Translations under genes and position numbers: made by a program | Notes under the pieces: model-generated | What the model was told of the DNA's origin: nothing | Database searches by the model: none | The model's input: only the letters and a program-made list of their open reading frames with translations | Source of the DNA: Stomorhina lunata | Lineage: Eukaryota; Arthropoda; Insecta; Diptera; Rhiniidae | NCBI GenBank assembly: GCA_933228675.1 | Contig: OW121741.1 | Span: forward strand, 42,369,080-42,433,079 | Direction: 5' to 3' | DNA: 64,000 nt | Shown: positions 246 to 63,808 of the stretch, in pieces | How positions within the stretch are numbered: the first letter of the stretch is position 1 | Layout: each line of letters starts with the position of its first letter

Positions 246-633
246 CGAAAATTAATCGCTTAAGTATCACAAAAAGCATACAAATTATCAAAACATATAA
301 AAATGGTGATTCTGCAACAGCCACATATTGTGCTTTAAGAGGAGATTATGGTTTATATAATCGTAGAACTACGCAAGCAATTGGATAATTGTAAAGAAAT
401 TTGAAAAGACTGGAGCGGTTACAAATATTATAAGGCCTGTATATCATCGTATAGCTCGTTCCGCTGAAAATATTGCTTCTGAAAGTGAATGTGTAGCCGT
501 AGGCCCGAATGTGTCGATTCAAGAATTAGGACTGTCTTACGGCACATTATGGCGTATTTTGCATTTAGATCTACACCTACATCCATATAAAGTCAAGCTC
601 ACACAACAACTGAAGACAGCTGACCATTCACAA
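246..633 (+). pseudogene. Mariner transposase, N-terminal half
   Basis: Degenerate reading frame for the DNA-binding half of the mariner transposase. Readable blocks include the first helix-turn-helix region (near 290-370), a VKKFEKTGAV-like block (near 390-420), a linker with IARSAENIASESE (near 450-490) and a second helix-turn-helix block ending HPYKVKL..LKTADHSQRR (near 570-635). There is at least one in-frame stop and a likely frameshift. The frame stops at the CGTCG duplicated by the Transib insertion and resumes at 4460. No function is expected. Confidence 0.82.
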
Positions 634-638
634 CGTCG
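634..638 (+). repeat. Transib target-site duplication, left copy (CGTCG)
   Basis: Five bases CGTCG directly precede the Transib left end and recur directly after its right end at 4455. A 5-bp GC-rich duplication of CGNCG type is characteristic of Transib insertions. It falls inside the mariner coding sequence, so the empty site can be reconstructed. Confidence 0.93.
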
Positions 639-666
639 CACAGTGGGATTTCGCTGGCAAAAAATA
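639..666 (+). repeat. Transib left end: heptamer, 12-bp spacer, nonamer-like block
   Basis: Heptamer CACAGTG at 639-645, a spacer of exactly 12 bp (646-657), then CAAAAAATA at 658-666. The A-run block resembles the RSS nonamer consensus ACAAAAACC. The first 14 bases are repeated inverted at the right end. Role: transposase binding and cleavage site, inferred from the family. Confidence 0.85.
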
Positions 667-1731
667 CATTTTTCGAGTATAAAATATCGAAAATCTAATT
701 ATGCAGTTTTGTAGAGGACTGTTTAGTTAAGAGAAATGCATCATTAGTTTTTTTATTTTTTTATTTTTTCTTTTCAAAATAACGCGGCAAAGTCACCTAA
801 ATGAAACTCTGCAGAAACTGTTTAAAATTTTCATGAATTTCAATTGCTCGGCAACATAATTTCTTTTTGCGATATATATTTACTGTAAGTATATTTTGAA
901 AATATAGTACCTCCACATAAATTAAGAAAAAAATTATGTTGGAAAACTATAACAGCTTATAAGATATTAAGGTTTAAATGATGGCACTTCAAAATGCAGT
1001 GTTTTAAATTTTTGTTGGAAAAAAAAAAGGTTAGCTTTGTCTAGCTTTGTGCTCTAGTTATAATCAAATGAAAGGTGGGAGTGTATTCTTTCGATTTGAT
1101 AAATAAAATTCCCATAATATTCCATACTGTTGAACAAAGTTATAAATTTTATAAAAAAAGTCACATGAAATTTCACTTTAATATTTCAAAGAAACATCTT
1201 AGAAAAAGTAGTGCATGCTTTTAGGCTTAATTAATTTTATGTTATGAATAATAGCAACAAATGGTTAAATATTATTTAACGGGTATTTAAAAGAAGTGAT
1301 GAATAAGAAAAACAAAACAAAATTTACAAATCGGACTGCAATATTCGGATACGTCGAATCTTAAATACCCTTCACCATAAATTATTAACAATTTGTTAAC
1401 GATTATTTGTCTGGTACTTAAAAGAATTGGTCAAGAAGAAAAAAGGAAAAAATTAAAAAAAATTTGGAGTGGAACACACGGGTATACCGAATCCCGCATA
1501 CCCTTCACCACATGTCAGTAACTATTTCATCACTTCCAATGTACTTTTTCTTTGTTATGTAAAGTTTTGTATGGAAAATTTTAACATACGGAATAATAAA
1601 TTTATAATACCCTTATCACCCACGATGAACGGTATAATAAACATCAAAATGAGAAGTTCTAATTATTTTTAAGACGTGTAAAAGTGTGAAAGAAGTTAAA
1701 TCGCGACTTTATATTAAAAAAAAATTATAAA
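667..1731. other. Transib 5' non-coding region
   Basis: AT-rich sequence between the left end and the transposase start. It should hold the promoter, but I see no confident core-promoter motif. Short AAATACCCTTCACCA-type strings near 1365 and 1495 resemble the ends of the dispersed repeat families elsewhere in the window. Confidence 0.5.
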
Positions 1732-3749
1732 ATGTGTACTTTTGAAGTTACTTATTTCGATCTAGCTACGGAGCTTTTTCGTTGCCGTAATAATACTGAT
1801 CTGCTAAGCGATTACATTAAATCAAAAAATGAGCTTTTAACAAGAGAAGAAATCGAAGAAGTTAAAGTCACAATTCAAAGGCGCTTTTTGGGAAATTTTT
1901 ACAAAAGACAAGAAGAGTCTTCAGGAAATCGTGACTACTTCTTTAAAAAAAATGACTTGTGGTTAAAAAGTATGTATCAAACAAAAATATGTATCAAACA
2001 AATAAAAAAAAAAAAAAACAAAAATATACAAGATTTAAAATCTGACAAAATTAAAAAAAAAACTTGGTTTCCAAATATTATTATGAGAAACTTATTTCTG
2101 CCTTTAATTTTGAATTAGGAACATTTAAAGTGTCCCTGCTCGATGATAGACCGAGTTGTTCAAAAGCAAGGGGAAGGCCTGCAATGGATTTTGATGATTG
2201 TAAAGATCGCGCAAAACGGTATAAAGCTTCTGAATTAGCATCAAAATATTCTAAAGAACATTTACACATGGCTACTAAGGCAATTGAAGAAAACAAAGGA
2301 AGTAAATCCTACATTACTTCTTCTGCTGTAGTAGCCTTGATGATGGATGCAGAGCTTACAAAATATCAATACGAGTGCATTAAAAAATTTCTTAAAGAAG
2401 AAGGATACGATATTTTACCACCGTATGCGAAACTTAAAGATGAAAAGGAAAATTGCTACCCGAATAATATTAATATTACTGAAAAAGATGCATCTGTTAG
2501 CTTGCAAAGTTTAATGGATCATACGATAAGCCGTTTGTTTTTAACTTTTTGTAATGAAGAAATAATTAACATGGAGGAAAATAGTTTAACATTAACATCT
2601 AAATGGGGTTGCGATGGTTCTTCTGGACATTCGGAATACAAACAAAATTTTACCGCTGGTGTAACTGACAAAAATTTGTTACTAGCTTGTTTGGTGCCAC
2701 TAAGGCTAGAGTCGACTTCAGGAAGGGAATTTTGGCGAAACAAAGCTCCATCATCAACTAGATACTGTCGTCCTATTTATTTTGAATTCGCTAAAGAAAC
2801 AAAGGAACAAATGTTAAGGATTGTTGGTAAAATTAATTCCGACATTGCAGCTTTGAATAATACTGAAGTAATCGCCTGTGGTAAAAAATTTACGATAGAA
2901 CACAATTTAGTATTTACAATGTTAGATGGTAAGACGGCTCAAACAGTTACAGGTACGACATCAGCAGCTGTTTGCTACATTTGTAAAGCGAAGCCCATTG
3001 AAATGAATGATTTAGAATTAGTTTCAAGAAAAGCTATTGATATCGAAGCATGTAAGTTAGGCATTTCCTCCTTGCATGCACGAATTAAGTTTATGGAATG
3101 CATTCTTCATCTTGCTTATAATTTACCATTTCAAAAGTGGTCGGCGTCGAAGGACGAGCACAAAATTCTTAAACAGGAAAATAAACATCGCATTCAAGTA
3201 GCCTTAAAAGAGCGGATGGGTATAAGAGTAGATGCTGTTCAACAGGGAACCGGGTCTTCCAACGATGGCAACACTTCAAGACGTTTTTTTTTGAACCCTC
3301 AAGTTGTTGCTGACATAACTGGGGTCAACGAGGATCTTATTGATCGATTTCGAGTTGTATTGCAAATAATAACGTGCGGCCAGAAAATAAACTCATCTCA
3401 GTTTAAAAATTTTGCATGGGATACGGCGAAACTATTTGTAGAAAAATATAGATGGTTCTACATGCCGGTTACGGTTCACAAAGTACTTATTCATGGAAAA
3501 CAAATTATGGATGCTGCTTTACTTCCAATAGGTTTGCTTTCAGAAGAAGCTGAAGAAGCTCGAAATAAAGACTACAGAAGGTATCGGCTAATGTTCGCCA
3601 GAAAGTGCAGCAGGATGGCAACAAACACAGATGTTTTCCATCGCCTTCTTGTATCATCAGATCCTTATATTACCAGCATAAGACGTCAACCCCATAAACA
3701 TGTTTTAGAAGTTGATGATGTCGTTAAAGAAATGATAGAAGATGAATAA
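1732..3749 (+). CDS. Transib transposase (RAG1-core homologue), spliced, about 622 aa
   Basis: Cut-and-paste transposase of Transib, acting in the nucleus on the element ends. I read two exons, 1732-1969 and 2119-3749, joined by a 149-bp intron with donor GTATGT and acceptor TTAG; the join is in frame and gives 622 residues. Visible landmarks (spliced numbering) are WGCDGSSGHSEY with the first catalytic Asp at 245, TMLDGK with the second at 349, a CYIC zinc pair at 365 and 368, HKVLIH with His 533 and 538 (the same spacing as the RAG1 zinc histidines), and EARNKDYRRYR with the likely catalytic Glu at 559. The N-terminal region has a GRPAMDF motif of the kind common in Transib. No stop or frameshift is seen after splicing. 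Without splicing, the first exon runs into an A-rich tract and stops at 2118. The intron is inferred; the homology is very secure. Confidence 0.92.
1970..2118 (+). other. Probable intron of the Transib transposase
   Basis: Begins GTATGT and ends in a pyrimidine-containing tract plus TTAG. It is A-rich, with poly-A runs near 2008 and 2055. Splicing creates an Arg codon (A + GA) and joins NDLWLK to TFKVSLLDD in the same frame. The alternative is a frameshifted single exon. Confidence 0.72.
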
Positions 3750-3750
3750 A
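3745..3750 (+). terminator. Poly(A) signal overlapping the Transib stop codon
   Basis: AATAAA overlaps the TAA stop of the transposase (gatgAATAAAag). A signal this close to the stop would give a very short 3' UTR. It is a short motif, so chance occurrence in AT-rich DNA is possible. Confidence 0.4.
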
Positions 3751-3810
3751 AGTCTATGTTTGTTACTAATTTTGATATTTATTCATTCCGATGTTTTGAA
3801 GAACAATAGG

Positions 3811-4335
3811 GGGTGGTGGGCGTGGAAGGTTCTCTTGAAACTTTGTAAATTTGAGATAAAATATATTTCCCAATTACATGTGTGGTGGGCGTTGGGCGTG
3901 GCAGATTTTCATGAAACTTTTCAGATATTTAAATTTCATAATACTGATAACTTGCACTAAGTTTCTTTATGATCGGTTAAGAAACAAAACTTTGTAGTGG
4001 AAAAATATTTTCGTTTTATGTAGGCGGGGGTGGGGGGCGGTAGGCGTGGCAGATTTTCTCGAAACTTTGTATTTTCAGCTTTATAACACTGATGATTTGT
4101 ATAAAGTTTCATGAATTTTGGTGAAGAAATAAAAATTTTTGGGAAAAAATATTTCCGGCTTACATGTGCGGTGGGCGTTGGGCGTGGCAGATTTCCATGA
4201 AACTTTCCATATATTTAAACTTTGTAATACTGATGATCTGTGCCGAGTTTCGTTACGAACGGTTAAGAAATAAACATTTGGGGTGAAAAAATATTTTTGG
4301 ATTATATGGGCGGGGGGCGATAGGCGTGGTCAATT
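3811..4335 (+). repeat. Tandem repeats at the Transib 3' end (about 143 bp)
   Basis: A G-rich block (GTGGGCG..GGGCGTGG, then CAGATTTTC.TGAAACTTT) recurs near 3882, 4025, 4168 and 4311, a period of about 143 bp, with a partial copy near 3811. Two variants alternate: GTTGGGCGTGGC at 3882 and 4168, and GGCGGTAGGCGTGG or similar at 4025 and 4311, giving a 286-bp higher-order period. This part is much more GC-rich than its surroundings. Function unknown. Confidence 0.82.
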
Positions 4336-4415
4336 TTGATGAAACTTTAAAATTTTCTTAACTGAGTTGATAGAAGCATATGTACCAAATTTCAATGTTC
4401 TACGAGCTCTCCTTA

Positions 4416-4454
4416 TATTTTTTGCCAAGAAATGTATGGAGAAATCCCACTGTG
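4416..4454 (-). repeat. Transib right end: heptamer, 23-bp spacer, nonamer-like block
   Basis: Read on the minus strand from 4454: heptamer CACAGTG (4454-4448), a spacer of exactly 23 bp (4447-4425), then CAAAAAATA (4424-4416). The A-rich block is identical to the one at the left end but lies 11 bp further in. The first 14 bp match the left end perfectly. Confidence 0.85.
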
Positions 4455-4459
4455 CGTCG
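4455..4459 (+). repeat. Transib target-site duplication, right copy (CGTCG)
   Basis: CGTCG directly after the right heptamer, identical to 634-638. Collapsing the two copies restores continuity of the mariner reading around the QRR motif. Confidence 0.93.
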
Positions 4460-5109
4460 TAGATACGTACGAATGGGTGCTTGAACAACAGGCGGTTGAC
4501 AGCGATTTTTCGAACAAAATTTTCTTCAGCGATCAAGCACATTTCTCACTCGGTGGGTATGTTAAAAAACAAAATTGTAATATTTGGGGTTCTGAGAATC
4601 CTCAAGTAATTGAAGAGAGGTCATTATATCCAGAAAAAGTCACTGTTTGGTGCGCACTTTGGTCAGAAAGTTTGATTGGACCTAACTTCTCCGAAAACGA
4701 CGATGAAACGACTTTCACCGTTAATTCGGAGCGTTATTGTCATATGACAAACGACTTTTTTGCCTGCTATTGAAGAATACGACTTGGAGAATATGTGGTT
4801 TCAAGAAGACGGTACCACATGCCACACAACTCGAGCGAATATGGCTTTAGTGCAAGAGACATTTCCAGGCCGCGTAATTTCTCGTCGTGGCTATATCAAC
4901 TGGCCAACAAGATCATGCGATTTGACACTATTAGACTTTTTTTTGTGGGGCTACGCAAAGACCGTGTTTATGCAGTTAAACCTTTAACTCTTGAGAACTT
5001 AAAAACAAACATTCGTCAAGTTATGGCTGAAATACCGCCCAATATGTGTCAAAAAATGGTCGAAAACTACCTCAAAAGAATCAATGCTGGCAACATTTCG
5101 CGTGCTTGA
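4460..5109 (+). pseudogene. Mariner transposase, catalytic half
   Basis: Continuation of the mariner transposase after the Transib. It reads EWVLEQQAVDSDF and FFSDQAHF (first catalytic Asp, near 4530), VWCALW and FTVNSERY, then after a frameshift near 4755 FQEDGTTCH (second Asp), WPTRSCDLTLLDFFLWG (third Asp, 41 residues on) and the C-terminal ENLKTNIRQVMAEI block. The frameshift and a further frame change near 4980 disable it. A related fragment lies at 37150-37580 on the other strand. Confidence 0.88.
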
Positions 5110-31044: not shown

Positions 31045-31055
31045 CTTCCCCTCTT
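31045..31055 (-). promoter_or_regulatory. Polypurine tract (AAGAGGGGAAG)
   Basis: Minus-strand AAGAGGGGAAG abuts the 3' LTR, the expected place for the plus-strand primer. The env stop codon lies immediately at its start (31054). Confidence 0.88.
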
Positions 31056-31908
31056 AATTTCCAGCGTCCTCGTTGGATGGGTAATGAATGTAAGTATTTG
31101 ATGCTTCTACGGGTTGTACTGGCTTTTCATCATTATTAATTTTAAGACAGGCTTTTCTTTTTAGCAACTTGAAAGTTAGGGCACCTATCAATGCCATTAT
31201 TAGGGCAATCCATGCAGCCACACTAAATCTGTAATTGGTAGCTAATTTTTTTATCTCACCAGCGTTGTTGATGTTAAGCTCCTTGAGCATTTCCAAAGAC
31301 AACATTTCCTCGTACCTTTCAACAGTATTAGGTGCGTTTATCACTGCTGGTAAAGGTTTCATCATTGAGATTTCTTTGCTGGAATATTTTTTTCCGCCTA
31401 TGGTGATTGTAGAGTTGTGATACTTGATGATAAATGTGCCAGTTATATTAATTTCTCTATCTTCAGTTGTAATTGACCCATCGTAACCATTCAACAACAT
31501 AATTCCCGGTGCTATTTCGTTCACTACGGGTAAGTGTTGATTGTTAGAAGTTGGACATTCCGACGGTAATCCGTTAAGCAATCTTGGCAAACAATTAGAT
31601 TCAGTAATATTTTCTAAATTGCGATCGTTACAAATATCCACGTCATTAACCCTTCTGCAGGCTGCTTTTACTTCAAGGACAGAGTTTTTACATAATACAA
31701 AATTTTCTTTATCAATTTTAACCGATACATTTAGTCTCTTAACGGGTTTTATAAATAAGCTATTACATGTTTCCTTTTCTGTTATTGGCAAATTAATCAT
31801 GTAAAGGATAGTAGTTTTATTCATCCCTATTTTCACTTCCCCGAACTCTAAAGCCTCAATTAGATTGATATAGGGCATATTAAATTCGTTGAAGTGTTTT
31901 CTAGTCAT
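31054..31908 (-). CDS. env: env-like gene, N-terminally incomplete
   Basis: Membrane glycoprotein gene of errantivirus type. From the first Met it has 284 codons; the frame is open back to 32034, inside the end of pol. The C-terminal half of the family is recognisable: a cysteine-containing ectodomain (residues about 48-118), a conserved GTFIIKYHNSTITI block with an N-linked glycosylation site (about 156-170), a coiled region, a transmembrane segment AAWIALIMALIGALTF (about 231-246) and a short basic-then-acidic tail. There is no signal peptide and no N-terminal surface domain, and the usual length is clearly greater. It is therefore unlikely to give a functional envelope. Insect env genes are normally expressed from a spliced RNA; I cannot place a splice acceptor here. 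Confidence 0.82.
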   Translation of the reverse strand: MTRKHFNEFNMPYINLIEALEFGEVKIGMNKTTILYMINLPITEKETCNSLFIKPVKRLNVSVKIDKENFVLCKNSVLEVKAACRRVNDVDICNDRNLENITESNCLPRLLNGLPSECPTSNNQHLPVVNEIAPGIMLLNGYDGSITTEDREINITGTFIIKYHNSTITIGGKKYSSKEISMMKPLPAVINAPNTVERYEEMLSLEMLKELNINNAGEIKKLATNYRFSVAAWIALIMALIGALTFKLLKRKACLKINNDEKPVQPVEASNTYIHYPSNEDAGN

Positions 31909-31940
31909 ATTCAGTTCGTATTCGGATAAAATAAAAGAGT

Positions 31941-34925
31941 TTATAATTCCTGCTTTAAGTCTTTTCTTTGTTTTTCCGTCAAGCTCTGTATAATTTTTAG
32001 TCTGTCTTGTTTTAAAGATGTTGGGTCTTTGTTCCTACCGAAAAATACTTCAATTGGTTTTCTATTTATTGTAGAATGAACAGAGTTGTTATATTTATTC
32101 AAAGAGTTGTTCAAAAGGTCTTCAAAAGAATTATAAACCTTTTCCGCGTTCATACACCTCATAATTTCCGTTAGTGTCGAATGGAAACGTTCCACCTGAC
32201 CATTTACAGAACTAGTGTAAGGTGGTGTTTTGTAAATTTTGATTCCCAGTTGATTCTCTAACATAAAAGTTACTGAAGCCGAATTAAGGGATTTTTCGTT
32301 GTCAATAACAACATTTTCGGGGGTACCGAAAGAAGTCAGTAACTCCTGTAAAGGAAGTTTTATATCTTCCGTTGCTCTCGACTTGACTATCCTTGCCTGG
32401 GCGTACTTGGAAAATTTATCTATTGCGGTTAAAATAACTCTATTGTTTGTATGGTAAATATCTATGTGCACGTATTGTCCTGGATATTGAGGAATAGGTG
32501 TTTTCCCCAAAACTATGTTATTTGGATGACGATCGTACTTGTTCTCACAACATATTTTACACTGTTTCACTATTTTCTTTATCTTTGCATGCATTTGGGG
32601 AAAATAACATTTAGTAAGTAATTGAAGTTTGTTTTCCTTTGGATTTCTGTGTGCTCGTCTATGTTCATTTATAATTTCAGTCTCTTGTTCAATGTCCGAT
32701 GTCAAATCTTTAACCATTGTCCTGGTGTATTTTGTGCGAAATTTAGAAAAGTAGGTTGACCACAACTCTTGTATTGTTCCTAGGATCTGATCTTCGGTCA
32801 TGATAGCATTAGTTACGGAAGGGTTCAAGTATGATTTCAGAATTTTTACAAGCCTGTCACTATCAAACTTTGTGTCTACTATTGTATGTCTATGATATGT
32901 GGGGAATATTATCTCAAAGTTATAAGAGGGCAGCTCGCCTTTTGAGATAATAATTTGGTTTTTAAACACATTAAGGGGAGACTCTGTGAACTGGATTAGA
33001 TTTTGCGACGAGCTTTCGTGACTGTGCTGTGTGGCTGTCAGTGAATTCACTTCAACAACTTGTGGAGGTCTTGACAATGCGTCGGCCACGATATTGCTGC
33101 TACCGGGCTTATATTTTAATTCATAATTATATTCTTCCAAGATGGCTTTCCATCTTTTTAATTTACTATTGGTGTTCTTATTCCCAAGAGCATATGTCAG
33201 TGGTTGATGGTCAGTAAAGATTTTCACTAATACTGGACCATATAAATAATTCCTTAATGATTTGAGAGCCCACACTATTGCGAGCATCTCCTTTTCATTT
33301 GTGGCATAATGCTCTTCTGCCTTATTTAGAGTTCTTGATATGAACATTATTGGTTTACCCTCCTGTTCAAGGACTGCTCCAAGAGCATAATTGGACGCAT
33401 CTGTTGTCAAGTGAAATTCTTTTCCAAAATTAGGGAATGCAAGCATCACTTCTTCAGAGGAAAGAGAGTTTTTTATCTTTGCGAATGCCTCTATGGCCCT
33501 ATCATCAAGTGTTACTGGGATTTTGGCAGACTCTCTTTTGGACATACGTCCCTCCTCGCCCCTTAAAAGGACGGTTAGGGGTTTTGCAAGCTTCGCATAA
33601 TCTTTTATGAAGCGCCTGTAAAACCCTGAGAGTCCTAAAAATGATCGGAGCTCTTTTATTGTTTTTGGAGGTGGAATTTCCTGAATAACTTTGACTTTTT
33701 CAGGATTTGTCCTTATCCCTTCCGTCGATATGATAAAGCCCAGATATTCTACTTCCTTCTTGAGGAATTCACATTTATCTAATTGTATTTTCATATTCGC
33801 CCGTTGTAGGGTGTCAAAAATGGTCTTTATGTTTTCTAGATGAGAATTTTCATCTTGACCAAAGACTATGATATCGTCTATATAGACGAAACATATTTTC
33901 CCAATATGCTCTCTTAGCATATCATCTAATGCTCGTTGAAATGCTGCGGGAGCATTTTTCAAGCCGAATGGTAATCGGAGAAACTCATATTTTCCGTTAT
34001 TTACAGAAAATGCTGTTTTCTCAATATCTTTTTCCCTGAGCGGTATTTGGTGGAACCCGCTTTTCAGGTCTAATACTGAAAACCACTTATTTCTACCGAG
34101 TTGAGCTAGAACCTCGTTTATTTGTGGTATGGGGTATCTGTCCGGTATAGTCACACTATTTAATTTTCTATAGTCTATGACCATTCTATATTTCTTCTCG
34201 TTGGAAGCATCCATTTTTTTCGGTACCACCAATACTGGAGAATTGTATGGGGACCTGGATGGTCTTATTATTCCGTGATCGAGTAACTCATTAATTTGTT
34301 TCTCGACTTCGTCTTTCATAGATGAAGGATATGGGTAACTTTTCGTATAAATTGGGTCGTCAGTCGATGTCCTTATTTCTGCTTTTACATTTGTAGTAAA
34401 TGTTAGTTTTTCGTCTGGTTCCGAAAAAAGTGACGAGTATGTTCTACATAGTCTCATTAATTTTAGTGTCTGTTCGTTTGTCAAGTGATCTGCTCCGATG
34501 TTCATACTATTAACCGATTCTGATTGTTGTTGTCTAATATGTACCTTTATAGAGTTATTAACTATCATATAATTTTTGGAAGTGTAAATAATTGCATTTA
34601 GCGTTTTCAAACTGTCGTTACCTAGGATACCATGGAAGGATTTCAGTGATGGCAATAGAAAGAATTTTAGATTTTCTGATTTTACCCCAAATAGATTGAT
34701 CAATGTATGATGGGTAATTGTGACCTTCCCACCAACGGAGTTTGCTTGGAAAATGTTTTCATTGGGTATTGGGTTTTTAATTAATTTAGGTTGAATGTAA
34801 TTTTTATTTGACCCTGTGTCGATTAAAAACCTAAATATTTTGCCATTGCGATCTTTACACCGAAAATAAGGTAACGTTGAATTGCTTAGTCTAAAAAATG
34901 AATATCCGCCAATTCGGTATATTCC
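31941..34925 (-). CDS. pol: pro-pol polyprotein (protease, RT, RNase H, integrase)
   Basis: Open frame of about 994 codons in the -1 frame relative to gag; it overlaps the gag end by 40 nt and has no ATG of its own at the start, so it is made by frameshifting. In order: protease with LIDTGS (near 34820); reverse transcriptase with FSVLDLKSGFHQIPL, LPFGLKNAP and the active site YIDD (near 33880); RNase H with TTDASNYALGAVL and TDHQPL; integrase with an HHCC zinc finger (H..H..CKICC) and the D,D,E catalytic set (HIDIYHT, VIDNEKSL, NGQVERFHS). The protein stops shortly after the integrase core, without the usual C-terminal integrase domain. It makes the enzymes for copying and inserting the element. 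Confidence 0.94.
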   Translation of the reverse strand, partial: GIYRIGGYSFFRLSNSTLPYFRCKDRNGKIFRFLIDTGSNKNYIQPKLIKNPIPNENIFQANSVGGKVTITHHTLINLFGVKSENLKFFLLPSLKSFHGILGNDSLKTLNAIIYTSKNYMIVNNSIKVHIRQQQSESVNSMNIGADHLTNEQTLKLMRLCRTYSSLFSEPDEKLTFTTNVKAEIRTSTDDPIYTKSYPYPSSMKDEVEKQINELLDHGIIRPSRSPYNSPVLVVPKKMDASNEKKYRMVIDYRKLNSVTIPDRYPIPQINEVLAQLGRNKWFSVLDLKSGFHQIPLREKDIEKTAFSVNNGKYEFLRLPFGLKNAPAAFQRALDDMLREHIGKICFVYIDDIIVFGQDENSHLENIKTIFDTLQRANMKIQLDKCEFLKKEVEYLGFIISTEGIRTNPEKVKVIQEIPPPKTIKELRSFLGLSGFYRRFIKDYAKLAKPLTVLLRGEEGRMSKRESAKIPVTLDDRAIEAFAKIKNSLSSEEVMLAFPNFGKEFHLTTDASNYALGAVLEQEGKPIMFISRTLNKAEEHYATNEKEMLAIVWALKSLRNYLYGPVLVKIFTDHQPLTYALGNKNTNSKLKRWKAILEEYNYELKYKPGSSNIVADALSRPPQVVEVNSLTATQHSHESSSQNLIQFTESPLNVFKNQIIISKGELPSYNFEIIFPTYHRHTIVDTKFDSDRLVKILKSYLNPSVTNAIMTEDQILGTIQELWSTYFSKFRTKYTRTMVKDLTSDIEQETEIINEHRRAHRNPKENKLQLLTKCYFPQMHAKIKKIVKQCKICCENKYDRHPNNIVLGKTPIPQYPGQYVHIDIYHTNNRVILTAIDKFSKYAQARIVKSRATEDIKLPLQELLTSFGTPENVVIDNEKSLNSASVTFMLENQLGIKIYKTPPYTSSVNGQVERFHSTLTEIMRCMNAEKVYNSFEDLLNNSLNKYNNSVHSTINRKPIEVFFGRNKDPTSLKQDRLKIIQSLTEKQRKDLKQEL

Positions 34926-36271
34926 TCATCCTCAGAAACATTGAAATGTTCATCTGAGTAGTCCGTTAGGTTCTGTATTCCTTTATCCTCTCGTGAAGGT
35001 TCCCATGTATCTGTTTTTTCGACGGTGTCAGGTACGGGGTCTTGGTGATCTTCAATATGATTTACTCTTTGCATCTTGCGAGGTTGATTAAATTGTGCAG
35101 ATTGGGGTAAAGGTCTAAGACCTGAAAATCTATTGTCCGGTAAAGGCCGATTAATATAATTTACTTTCTTGGAATACATAGTAGGATCAACGTCCATAGG
35201 GACTGGAGGTTTTGGTTGATTAGGTCTTGGTGGTGGTAAATGGAAATTTTGTTGTTGTGGGTAATTATAGTTATAATTTTGTCTGTACGAGTTTTGGAAA
35301 TTTTGTTGATATGGGTTATGGAAATTTTGTCCGTTTGTGTTATGAGATTGATGTCCTTGAATGTTACCTGGATGCATATTAAATCTTGGCATAGAAGGCT
35401 GAGGGATATGTGCCAGTTGTGGATAGAATGTTTGGTTTGGATTAGTATTGTTAAATTTCCTATGAGGAATGGGAGGTGGAATTCTGTTAGTGCCACTAGC
35501 TTGTTGTGTTCTGAATTGTTGGTTTTCCAACTTTAGGCACAAGTGTAAGGCTTCGTGTAGGTCCTTGGGTTCTCTAATTCCCAGTAATCTTGGTAAATCA
35601 CCTCTTAATCCTCTGACAAACGTGTCAAGAGCCTTATTCCTATAGTTTTTGGTCAGCAAATAAATGGCATCTTCACTTTCATCTAAACAGGCTATCTTGT
35701 TTAAGATTAGTGATAGATGACCGTAAATCCTCTTATAAAATTCCTGCACTGTATTATTACCTTGAATCATAGAGATCAATTGGTATTCGAGGGTGCCGAG
35801 GTCTCGCTGGTCTGCGTAATGAACTGTCAAGCATTGGATTATACTTTTCCAGTTCAGTGGAGTATTATAACTTTCTAGCGCAATGTCCGCGTCGCCCACA
35901 ATTTTATTTCTGATAACGTTTAGTATGCCGAAATATTTTGCTGAACCTCTAAGAGGTTCGTAAATTTTAAGTACTCTCTCTGTACTTTTTTTCCAGGAGC
36001 TAAATTCTGTTCTGTTCCCTGAAAATTCTCTAAGAGACCTTACTACGTCTGGTATTTTATCTAAGTCTGTTAGGTCATTGCCACGGTCTATTCCCTGATC
36101 TACTCTAGGTTCTGGTTCATTATGAGAAGCTCGTTCTTCTAACAGTATTCTACGTACTATATTTGCAATATTGGCTTCCTGATCTTGTACTAAGGCATTT
36201 TGAGCCTGGGGTGGGTGAGGGGGGGGATGATTAAGCATTGGGGGCCGAATTAGGTTATTTTGATTTGCCAT
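34886..36271 (-). CDS. gag: gag polyprotein
   Basis: 461 codons from an ATG at 36271, the first long frame after the leader. N-terminal Pro-rich stretch (about residues 8-22), then an alpha-helical capsid-like region (about 65-255) of the errantivirus kind, a Gln/Asn/Pro-rich segment (about 256-350) and PMDVDP near residue 361, a motif often seen near the end of insect gag proteins. No CCHC zinc knuckle is seen, which is common in this group. It forms the particle core and packages the RNA. It ends in the slippery site that leads to pro-pol. Confidence 0.9.
   Translation of the reverse strand: MANQNNLIRPPMLNHPPPHPPQAQNALVQDQEANIANIVRRILLEERASHNEPEPRVDQGIDRGNDLTDLDKIPDVVRSLREFSGNRTEFSSWKKSTERVLKIYEPLRGSAKYFGILNVIRNKIVGDADIALESYNTPLNWKSIIQCLTVHYADQRDLGTLEYQLISMIQGNNTVQEFYKRIYGHLSLILNKIACLDESEDAIYLLTKNYRNKALDTFVRGLRGDLPRLLGIREPKDLHEALHLCLKLENQQFRTQQASGTNRIPPPIPHRKFNNTNPNQTFYPQLAHIPQPSMPRFNMHPGNIQGHQSHNTNGQNFHNPYQQNFQNSYRQNYNYNYPQQQNFHLPPPRPNQPKPPVPMDVDPTMYSKKVNYINRPLPDNRFSGLRPLPQSAQFNQPRKMQRVNHIEDHQDPVPDTVEKTDTWEPSREDKGIQNLTDYSDEHFNVSEDEEYTELADIHFLD
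34892..34898 (-). promoter_or_regulatory. -1 frameshift slippery site TTTTTTA
   Basis: On the minus strand, gag frame codons CAT TTT TTA GAC TAA contain the heptamer T TTT TTA in the correct X XXY YYZ phase two codons before the gag stop. Slipping back one base enters the pro-pol frame. I did not identify a downstream stem or pseudoknot with certainty. Confidence 0.75.
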
Positions 36272-62819: not shown

Positions 62820-62884
62820 CTAGAATATAAAAAAAATGAAATTTAAAATATTTCTAAAGCCATAAAATTATTCTATATAATTAC

Positions 62885-63808
62885 ATGTAATTGATACTCA
62901 ATGATAGGCATTTCGGGACCAGTCTTCTCGGGTCCAAACTGTTTTCTTAAAGCAGCATAACGTACCGCTATAACAGCAGCACTCGATAAAGTATTAACAG
63001 ATTCTTGCATAATGCCAATACGTCCCGCTGAAAATGATTCTAAAGCGGCCCCTAATACTTTGCCGGGTTCGGTAAAAACACTTTCATATTGGCCCTCGGG
63101 AGTAACATCTCCAGTACGATTGAGTAGATTCTCCCGAGGTATACGGTAGTTGGTAAACATAACGAAACCATTGTCAATGCCATTTAAACCGATCTTCTCA
63201 CCAATATCACCCACCAACACACCCGGATAGGGCTTTAGGGTATTCGGATCTCTAATGGGTATAAGGAAACCATGTAAACCCTGACTTACACCATCAGCGG
63301 TATACAAATTGGCAAAAGTCATAGCAACTGTGGATGTCTTACCCAAGTTGCCTACCCAACATTTGGCAGCCTCAAAATCTGGGGTATTAATAATGAACTC
63401 CTGAGTCTCAGGATCATATGTAGCGGTGGTACGAATACTTTTTGTGTTACTGCCATGAGAAACCTCTGTTATGGCCAAACAGGTAACCACTTCACGATTC
63501 CAAGCAGCCTCATAATACTTCTTATGCCTCTCCGTGCCCATGGCACGAATAGCATTATTAAACAGACCCACTCCCAGGGCGATCTTAACCGATAAACTGG
63601 GACAGTAGGAGTGTAAAGCCTCATTAATGCTCATTAAATATTTGGTTTTTTCGCTAAACGAATGTTGTTCGATTTCCTTAGGAACTAAATCCAAATGAGC
63701 CATACGATTCATTTGCATGGCACAAATACGTTTCTGTTCATCGGTGGGTAGTAGGGCGATGGGTTGGGAGAAGAGAGGATCATTCTCTAGGATTTTCCAA
63801 ACCTTGTA
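62885..63808 (-). CDS. ACOX3: Peroxisomal acyl-CoA oxidase 3-like, large internal exon
   Basis: Peroxisomal flavoenzyme that oxidises branched or long-chain acyl-CoA to trans-2-enoyl-CoA and hydrogen peroxide, the first step of peroxisomal beta-oxidation. This exon (308 codons, phase 0, acceptor TTTCTTTAG at 63808, donor GTAATT at 62884) carries the N-terminal helical domain and the beta domain: AITEVSHGSNTKSIRTTATYD (substrate/FAD region), FIINTPDFEAAKCWVGNLGKT, HGFLIPIRDPNTL, GDIGEKIGLNGIDNGF, NRTGDVTPEG and the RKQFGPE flavin-binding block. Four visible exons sum to about 647 residues, so only a few dozen N-terminal residues lie to the right of the window. RTGDVTPEG and EYQ..QWRIFPYLAA fit ACOX3 better than ACOX1. 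No disruption; codon use is clearly that of a host gene. Confidence 0.93.

What the first reader, a model, noticed from the sequence alone, without database searches (positions are those of the whole stretch)
639..4454. Transib whose two ends form a 12-RSS/23-RSS-like pair
Both ends start with CACAGTG, the exact consensus heptamer of vertebrate recombination signals, and both contain an identical CAAAAAATA block. The spacer between them is exactly 12 bp on the left (646-657) and exactly 23 bp on the right (4425-4447). The 11-bp difference is about one helical turn. That Transib and RAG1 are related, and that Transib ends resemble RSSs, is established; whether a natural 12/23 asymmetry has been described for this lineage I cannot check. 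If it is functional it would show the 12/23 layout in a transposon without V(D)J recombination.
Basis: partly seen in the sequence, partly recalled or inferred. Interest (0 to 1): 0.92.

Follow-up and report, generated by a model that had tools for sequence, protein, structure and literature searches.

The report
Active Transib with 12/23-like ends
A recently mobile insect jumping gene related to the antibody-gene recombinase RAG1 has one end whose two DNA signals lie about 12 bases apart and another where they lie about 23 apart, a layout already reported for a few relatives, while most of the related families examined in the same genome have equal ends.

Summary
Window 639-4454 is a complete Transib transposon (5-bp CGTCG duplications, one transposase gene, catalytic D, D, E present). 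Left end: CACAGTG-12 bp-CAAAAAATA; right end: CACAGTG-23 bp-CAAAAAATA. The ends differ by an 11-bp gap; in the best RSS-nonamer register the spacers read 11 and 22.

The host genome holds at least 8 full-length copies differing at 0-10 positions; 9 of 9 young two-ended copies have perfect 5-bp duplications, so it moved recently. Older relatives largely keep the layout: 18 of 18 left ends at 12, 20 of 24 right ends at 23, though ancestry alone could explain this.

It is not a rule of the lineage. Of 9 Transib families in this genome with both ends resolved, 7 are symmetric at about 23, one symmetric at 12, and only the window family is 12/23. Transib 12/23 asymmetry is in print (Drosophila Transib5, Anopheles Transib2 and N1-N3, after Kapitonov and Jurka 2005, read through a 2021 review), as is an NBD-like GRP region in Transibs.

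Most likely the transposase reads heptamer and inner block at a distance that tolerates one helical turn; asymmetry is permitted, not required. A new member of a known kind, useful because it looks active and sits beside symmetric cousins.

The parts
634..638 (.). left copy of 5-bp target-site duplication CGTCG
   Evidence: perfect 5-bp duplications in 9 of 9 young two-ended copies
639..645 (+). left-end heptamer CACAGTG
646..657 (+). left 12-bp spacer GGATTTCGCTGG
   Evidence: 12 bp in 18 of 18 distinct older left ends (duplicate L067 left out) and 7 of 7 free-gap pattern hits (two of these are L018 and L031 again)
658..666 (+). left A-rich block CAAAAAATA (nonamer-like; RSS register starts one base earlier)
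1732..1969 (+). predicted exon 1 of the Transib transposase (start MCTFEV)
   Evidence: ORF; splice model chosen by eye, joined and translated without stop; family consensus WLxxxFxV is met across the join
1970..2118 (+). predicted intron GTATGT...TTAG
   Evidence: inference, no RNA data
2119..3749 (+). predicted exon 2; whole model 622 aa; open frame 2064-3749
   Evidence: HzTransib 6pqn E 7.7e-119
2172..2180 (+). GRP motif of the NBD-like (nonamer-binding-domain-like) region
   Evidence: residue 98 of the spliced model
2613..2615 (+). first catalytic Asp (D184 of the open frame)
   Evidence: falls on HzTransib D126 by the alignment (residue numbers)
2925..2927 (+). second catalytic Asp (D288)
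   Evidence: HzTransib D225
3555..3557 (+). catalytic Glu (E498)
   Evidence: HzTransib E436
4416..4424 (-). right A-rich block CAAAAAATA
4425..4447 (-). right 23-bp spacer GGATTTCTCCATACATTTCTTGG
   Evidence: 23 bp in 20 of 24 distinct older right ends (others 24, 22, 20, 19)
4448..4454 (-). right-end heptamer CACAGTG
4455..4459 (.). right copy of target-site duplication CGTCG

Best explanation
This is a full-length, very recently mobile Transib cut-and-paste transposon. A dimer of its predicted 622-aa RAG1-core-like transposase grips the first ~14 bp of each end (heptamer plus GGATTTC) and, through an N-terminal GRP/NBD-like region, a second A-rich block; it cuts both ends and inserts into a GC-rich 5-bp target. 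The block may sit one helical turn nearer to or farther from the heptamer without leaving the same DNA face, so 23/23, 12/12 and 12/23 families all arise. In this family an 11-bp loss in the left spacer (or gain in the right) made the pair asymmetric. The asymmetry is tolerated, not a pairing rule. Shown here: anatomy, near-identical copies with target duplications, spacing in copies and in other families. Inferred: the dimer and cut-and-paste chemistry (from HzTransib and RAG), DNA contacts of the GRP region, turn tolerance, direction of the 11-bp change.
For: HzTransib match E 7.7e-119 with D, D, E in register. At least 8 full-length copies with 0-10 differing positions and 9 of 9 young two-ended copies with perfect 5-bp duplications. 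Free-gap pattern in the genome: 31 hits, 10 at spacer 12, 20 at 23, 1 at 24, none between; reversed control 0. A second free-gap pattern (0-30): 7 of 7 at 12. Other families: 7 symmetric at ~23 and one symmetric at 12, with 5-bp duplications. The GRP stretch lines up collinearly with RAG1 GGRPR in a profile match and is published for Transibs (PMC9435367 passages).
Against: No binding or cleavage data. The GRP-to-NBD match is weak at domain level (i-E about 0.6 in the two RAG1 chains printed), a single-sequence search of that stretch found no RAG1, family H reads GRH there and no such stretch was found for family C, although both have the ~23 layout. The inner block is AT-rich but not A-rich on the same strand in families C, F and H (GATTAATTC, ATTWWATTC, ATTTWATT), so calling it one element across families is my reading. 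Older copies show no sign of selection on spacer length beyond control intervals.
Confidence: 0.6

Rival explanations
1. The asymmetry is a true pairing rule for this family: the transposase pairs a 12-type with a 23-type end, as RAG1/RAG2 does, so that two left or two right ends are not used together.
For: 9 of 9 young two-ended copies have one end of each kind, and non-autonomous derivatives that spread have both kinds. Amphioxus ProtoRAG is reported to prefer its asymmetric pair (PMC8289069 passages).
Against: Any transposon with two fixed ends shows this. Eight of nine resolved families of the genome are symmetric. No RAG2-like gene was seen in the element (no further frame over 74 aa); a review says 12/23 asymmetry is recognised only when RAG1 is complexed with RAG2 (PMC8355894 section 6).
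Confidence: 0.13
2. Only the outer ~14 bp matter; the A-rich block is a leftover of the original inverted repeat, and the 11-bp indel and the match to 12/23 are accidents.
For: HzTransib ends are said to have little or no nonamer similarity (PMC8289069 passages), and the solved HzTransib chain begins after the GRP region. The indel-rate test is negative. In the best nonamer register common to both ends the spacers are 11/22.
Against: On older left ends, which were found without using these letters, the block is the best-kept part (0.97 identity against 0.81-0.84 elsewhere; the right-end figure, 0.94, is inflated because 10 of its 25 rows were found with a pattern that contains the block). An inner block at one common distance on both ends recurs in the eight other resolved families, with differing spacer letters clearest in B, C and M.
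Confidence: 0.24

Closest known systems
Transib5 (D. melanogaster) and Transib2, N1, N2, N3 (An. gambiae), Kapitonov and Jurka 2005 as described in PMC8355894 (Fig. 2 legend and section 6; the 2005 paper is not held)
   Same: Transib transposons whose two ends have 12 and 23 (+-1) bp between heptamer and nonamer-like block
   Different: Sequences could not be compared (figure not held); whether the present family descends from the same asymmetric ancestor is not known
HzTransib (Helicoverpa zea; 6pqn and related entries)
   Same: Transposase homologous over residues 88-546 of the window frame, same D, D, E
   Different: Reported symmetric ends with little or no nonamer similarity (PMC8289069 passages); solved chain lacks the GRP region
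V(D)J recombination signals and RAG1/RAG2
   Same: CAC-first heptamer, A-rich second block, about 12 and 23 bp apart; RAG1-core homology
   Different: Here both ends belong to one transposon, no RAG2 seen, block departs from ACAAAAACC, common best register 11/22
ProtoRAG (amphioxus)
   Same: Bipartite asymmetric ends, 5-bp duplications
   Different: Different second element, reported 27/31 spacers, RAG1L plus RAG2L (PMC8355894 and PMC8289069, passages)

Membership tests
Transib superfamily | Transib transposase with D, D, E catalytic residues | tested here: met
   HzTransib E 7.7e-119; D184, D288, E498
Transib superfamily | Terminal repeats beginning CAC with heptamer-like start | tested here: met
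   CACAGTG at both ends
Transib superfamily | 5-bp, usually GC-rich target duplication | tested here: met
   9 of 9 young two-ended copies
Transib with 12/23 asymmetric ends | Heptamer to block 12 and 23 +-1 bp | tested here: met
   12/23 to CAAAAAATA, 11/22 in the common best nonamer register
Transib with 12/23 asymmetric ends | Descent from the same ancestor as Transib5 or Anopheles Transib2 | not tested
   their sequences were not fetched
12-RSS/23-RSS pair | Nonamer close to ACAAAAACC | tested here: inconclusive
12-RSS/23-RSS pair | Recombination only between unlike signals (12/23 rule) | not testable with these tools
   needs cleavage assays; 8 of 9 resolved families are symmetric
RAGL transposon | RAG1-like plus RAG2-like gene | tested here: not met
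   apart from the two transposase frames no frame over 74 aa in 639-4454; no RAG2 profile was run

The most novel reading that the evidence does not exclude
Transib ends are quantised in helical turns: the second block sits about 12 or about 23 bp from the heptamer and rarely between, and families in one genome hold three pairings (23/23, 12/12, 12/23), so the raw material of the 12/23 rule was standing variation in the transposon lineage, with exclusivity added later.
Probability: 0.35. Interest if true: 0.68.

Novelty: new member of a known kind. Interest (0 to 1): 0.45.

Why it matters
The origin of the 12/23 rule is an open question. A Transib with 12/23-type ends that appears to have moved recently, in the same genome as symmetric ~23/23 families and a 12/12 family, allows a direct test of whether spacing preference predates RAG2. 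The layout itself was already described.

Tried and rejected
Chance: rejected for the block itself (2 of 3000 simulated pairs), not for the exact numbers 12 and 23.

Selection on spacer length within older copies: not shown. Left 0 of 19 rows changed (one duplicate included); the six nearest control intervals had 2/18, 1/17, 0/16, 0/18, 2/18, 0/17 changed and two farther ones 10/15 and 5/9. Right 4 of 25 rows changed against 0/21, 0/20, 3/22, 4/21. Rows with alignment score under 80 or not reaching the terminal two bases were dropped there: of 40 loci given (29 from the DNA search, 11 from the pattern), 19 gave a left end and 25 a right end. L067 is the same place as L011, so 18 and 24 are distinct. 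Of the 24 right ends, 15 come from the DNA search (12 at 23) and 9 from the pattern (8 at 23); the pattern leaves the length free but demands intact letters, so right-end letter conservation is inflated.

Copies outside the host genome: none in viral contigs by protein or pattern, none in phages by protein. DNA behind the homologous proteins (536 under the cut, 120 listed) could not be reached.

Tree: a first tree put the window family and D in one half (98/99) with A, B, C, F, G, H, J in the other; with M added, G left out and J's other copy used the arrangement of halves stayed but its bootstrap fell to 50 (50/98). D and J are long branches. I draw no history from it.

Host identity: an acyl-CoA-oxidase-like exon was searched; best named hits are Timema and Nilaparvata, but the tool's length limit shuts out full-length relatives, so no order is claimed.

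The family G locus (L083) gave no ends. A single-sequence search with the GRP region found no RAG1. The pattern GGATTTCTTCATACATT-gap-CAAAAAATA and a pattern for family D ends did not complete, so D rests on two copies.

On print: in the listings of searches and in the passages I opened I saw no mention of a 12/12 Transib; figures, supplements and the 2005 paper were not seen, so I do not claim it is unpublished.

Full report
WHAT IS THERE. The element runs from 639 to 4454 (3816 bp) between two CGTCG duplications. Its left end reads CACAGTG, 12 bp, CAAAAAATA, and its right end, on the other strand, CACAGTG, 23 bp, CAAAAAATA. The ends are the same for 14 bases (CACAGTGGGATTTC) and again over TGGCAAAAAATA, with an 11-bp gap between. 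Measured to the best match with the RSS nonamer common to both ends the spacers are 11 and 22 rather than 12 and 23, so 'exactly 12/23' depends on where the block is said to begin.

THE GENE. The open frame 2064-3749 matches the solved HzTransib transposase (6pqn) at E 7.7e-119 and, more weakly, RAG1. D184, D288 and E498 fall on HzTransib D126, D225 and E436. An upstream frame (1732-2118) joins it through a plausible intron, GTATGT at 1970 to TTAG at 2118, giving 622 residues without a stop; across the join the family pattern WLxxxFxV of the 42-protein consensus is met. The intron is an inference. The N-terminal part holds GRPAMDFDDCKDRAKRYK. A regular expression for GRP with room on both sides matched 80 of the 120 listed homologs; some of the rest begin at or after it, and P0005 and P0073 have it too near their start for the expression. 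In the other families of this genome the longest frames of A, B, D, F, G and one J copy have it, the other J copy reads GRS and H reads GRH at that place, M has GRP in another frame, and none was found for C. A profile of 42 Transibs lines the stretch up with GGRPR of the RAG1 nonamer-binding domain, in the right order with the other matched parts but weakly (domain i-E about 0.6). An equivalent NBD with GRP in both Transib subgroups is already reported (PMC9435367, passages). The solved HzTransib chain begins after this region.

COPIES. The host assembly (728 Mb, 104 contigs, unnamed) holds at least 8 full-length copies; counts are lower bounds because only 40 of 1143 candidates were scored. 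They differ from the window at 0 to 10 positions. These 8, the window included, and one copy with an internal deletion (L039) all have perfect 5-bp duplications: CGTCG, CGCCG, CTTCG, CGGCG, CGCCG, CGTCG, CGCCG, TGCCG, CGGCG. The open frame is unbroken in 7 of the 8. The family therefore moved very recently. A pattern that leaves the gap free (3-30) finds 31 ends in the genome: 10 at spacer 12, 20 at 23, 1 at 24, with none for the reversed control. All ten of the 12s and ten of the 20 are the young copies, so they are not independent.

OLDER COPIES. Among older relatives (longest matches 77-85% identical), distinct left ends are at 12 in 18 of 18 and right ends at 23 in 20 of 24, the others at 24, 22, 20 and 19 (filters and origin of the rows are in Tried and rejected). 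A second free-gap pattern gave 7 of 7 at 12, two of them counted already. Of 16 older loci looked at for structure (of 29 fetched), 13 run to about element position 642-688 and resume at 3018-3023: a shared deletion, that is, a non-autonomous derivative that spread. None of the 18 older left ends has the heptamer CACAGTG; 9 have CACACTG and 3 CACATTG.

OTHER FAMILIES. The transposase finds 78 places in the genome (78 of 2061 candidates scored); 11 are this family and the other 67 are Transibs at 36-48% identity. I fetched 16 of those 67 places, which fell into nine families by their ends and DNA identity; eight families gave both ends. A, B, C, F, H, J and M are symmetric with the inner block about 23 bp from the heptamer; D is symmetric with CAAAACT at 12 on both sides, in two copies. 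M reads CACGGTG-23-ACAAAACCC and CACAGTG-23-ACAAAATTA, B reads CACACAG-23-ACAAAAATG and CACACAG-23-ACAAAAATA: at these ends as close or closer to the RSS nonamer than the window family. Target duplications are perfect in 14 of 15 of these copies and 4 of 5 in one; for L084, L085 and L086 the duplication was part of how the ends were found. In C, F and H the block is AT-rich but not A-rich on that strand, and in A, F and H the likeness of the two ends runs on through the spacer. So one resolved family of nine is asymmetric, and its two spacings differ by 11 bp, as do the short and long classes. Trees do not firmly place D or J and are not used to order the changes.

WHAT IS KNOWN. A 2021 review names Transib5 of Drosophila and Transib2, N1, N2, N3 of Anopheles as having 12/23 asymmetric ends, after Kapitonov and Jurka 2005 (PMC8355894, passages and section 6; the 2005 paper itself was not held). 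PMC9435367 (passages) states that Subgroup II Transibs have both asymmetric and symmetric ends. PMC8289069 (passages) says most Transib families are symmetric. The window family is thus a new member of a described kind. What the present data add is that it looks recently active and that three layouts coexist in one genome.

MECHANISM. Best supported is cut-and-paste by a RAG1-core-like dimer that needs the terminal ~14 bp and is helped by a second block whose distance can change by one helical turn. Asymmetry then arises from an 11-bp indel and is tolerated. A true 12/23 pairing rule is possible but is not what the other resolved families show, and no RAG2 was seen in the element. That the block does nothing remains a real rival.

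Noticed in passing
window 511-638 and 4460-5109: The element sits inside a decayed transposase-like gene (by recalled motifs mariner/Tc1-like; Pfam found nothing for the pieces given); the joined flanks continue its reading for a few residues and then show a frame break.
   Followed up: partly
L004, L005, L039 at the insertion site: Three copies of this family lie at the same position of a repeated sequence (306 bp at 88% between L004 and L005, 53 bp shared with L039), L005 in the opposite orientation, which suggests separate insertions into one favoured site.
   Followed up: partly
L075, L076 (family D): A Transib family with 12/12 symmetric ends, CACGATG-12-CAAAACT and CACAGTG-12-CAAAACT, duplications CAATG and CCATG.
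   Followed up: partly
L086 (family M): Transib end with ACAAAACCC 23 bp from the heptamer, 8 of 9 to the RSS nonamer.
   Followed up: partly
L083 (family G): Transib-like transposase match at 44% with no recognisable ends in 5.1 kb: decayed or possibly domesticated.
   Followed up: partly
window 3847-4348: Tandem array of a 142-bp unit, 3.5 copies at 70% matches, inside the 3' part of the element.
   Followed up: no
window 31054-36271, minus strand: LTR-retrotransposon-like block with a reverse transcriptase/RNase H/integrase frame and further frames on both sides.
   Followed up: no
window 62873-63718, minus strand: Acyl-CoA oxidase exon, probably a host gene.
   Followed up: partly
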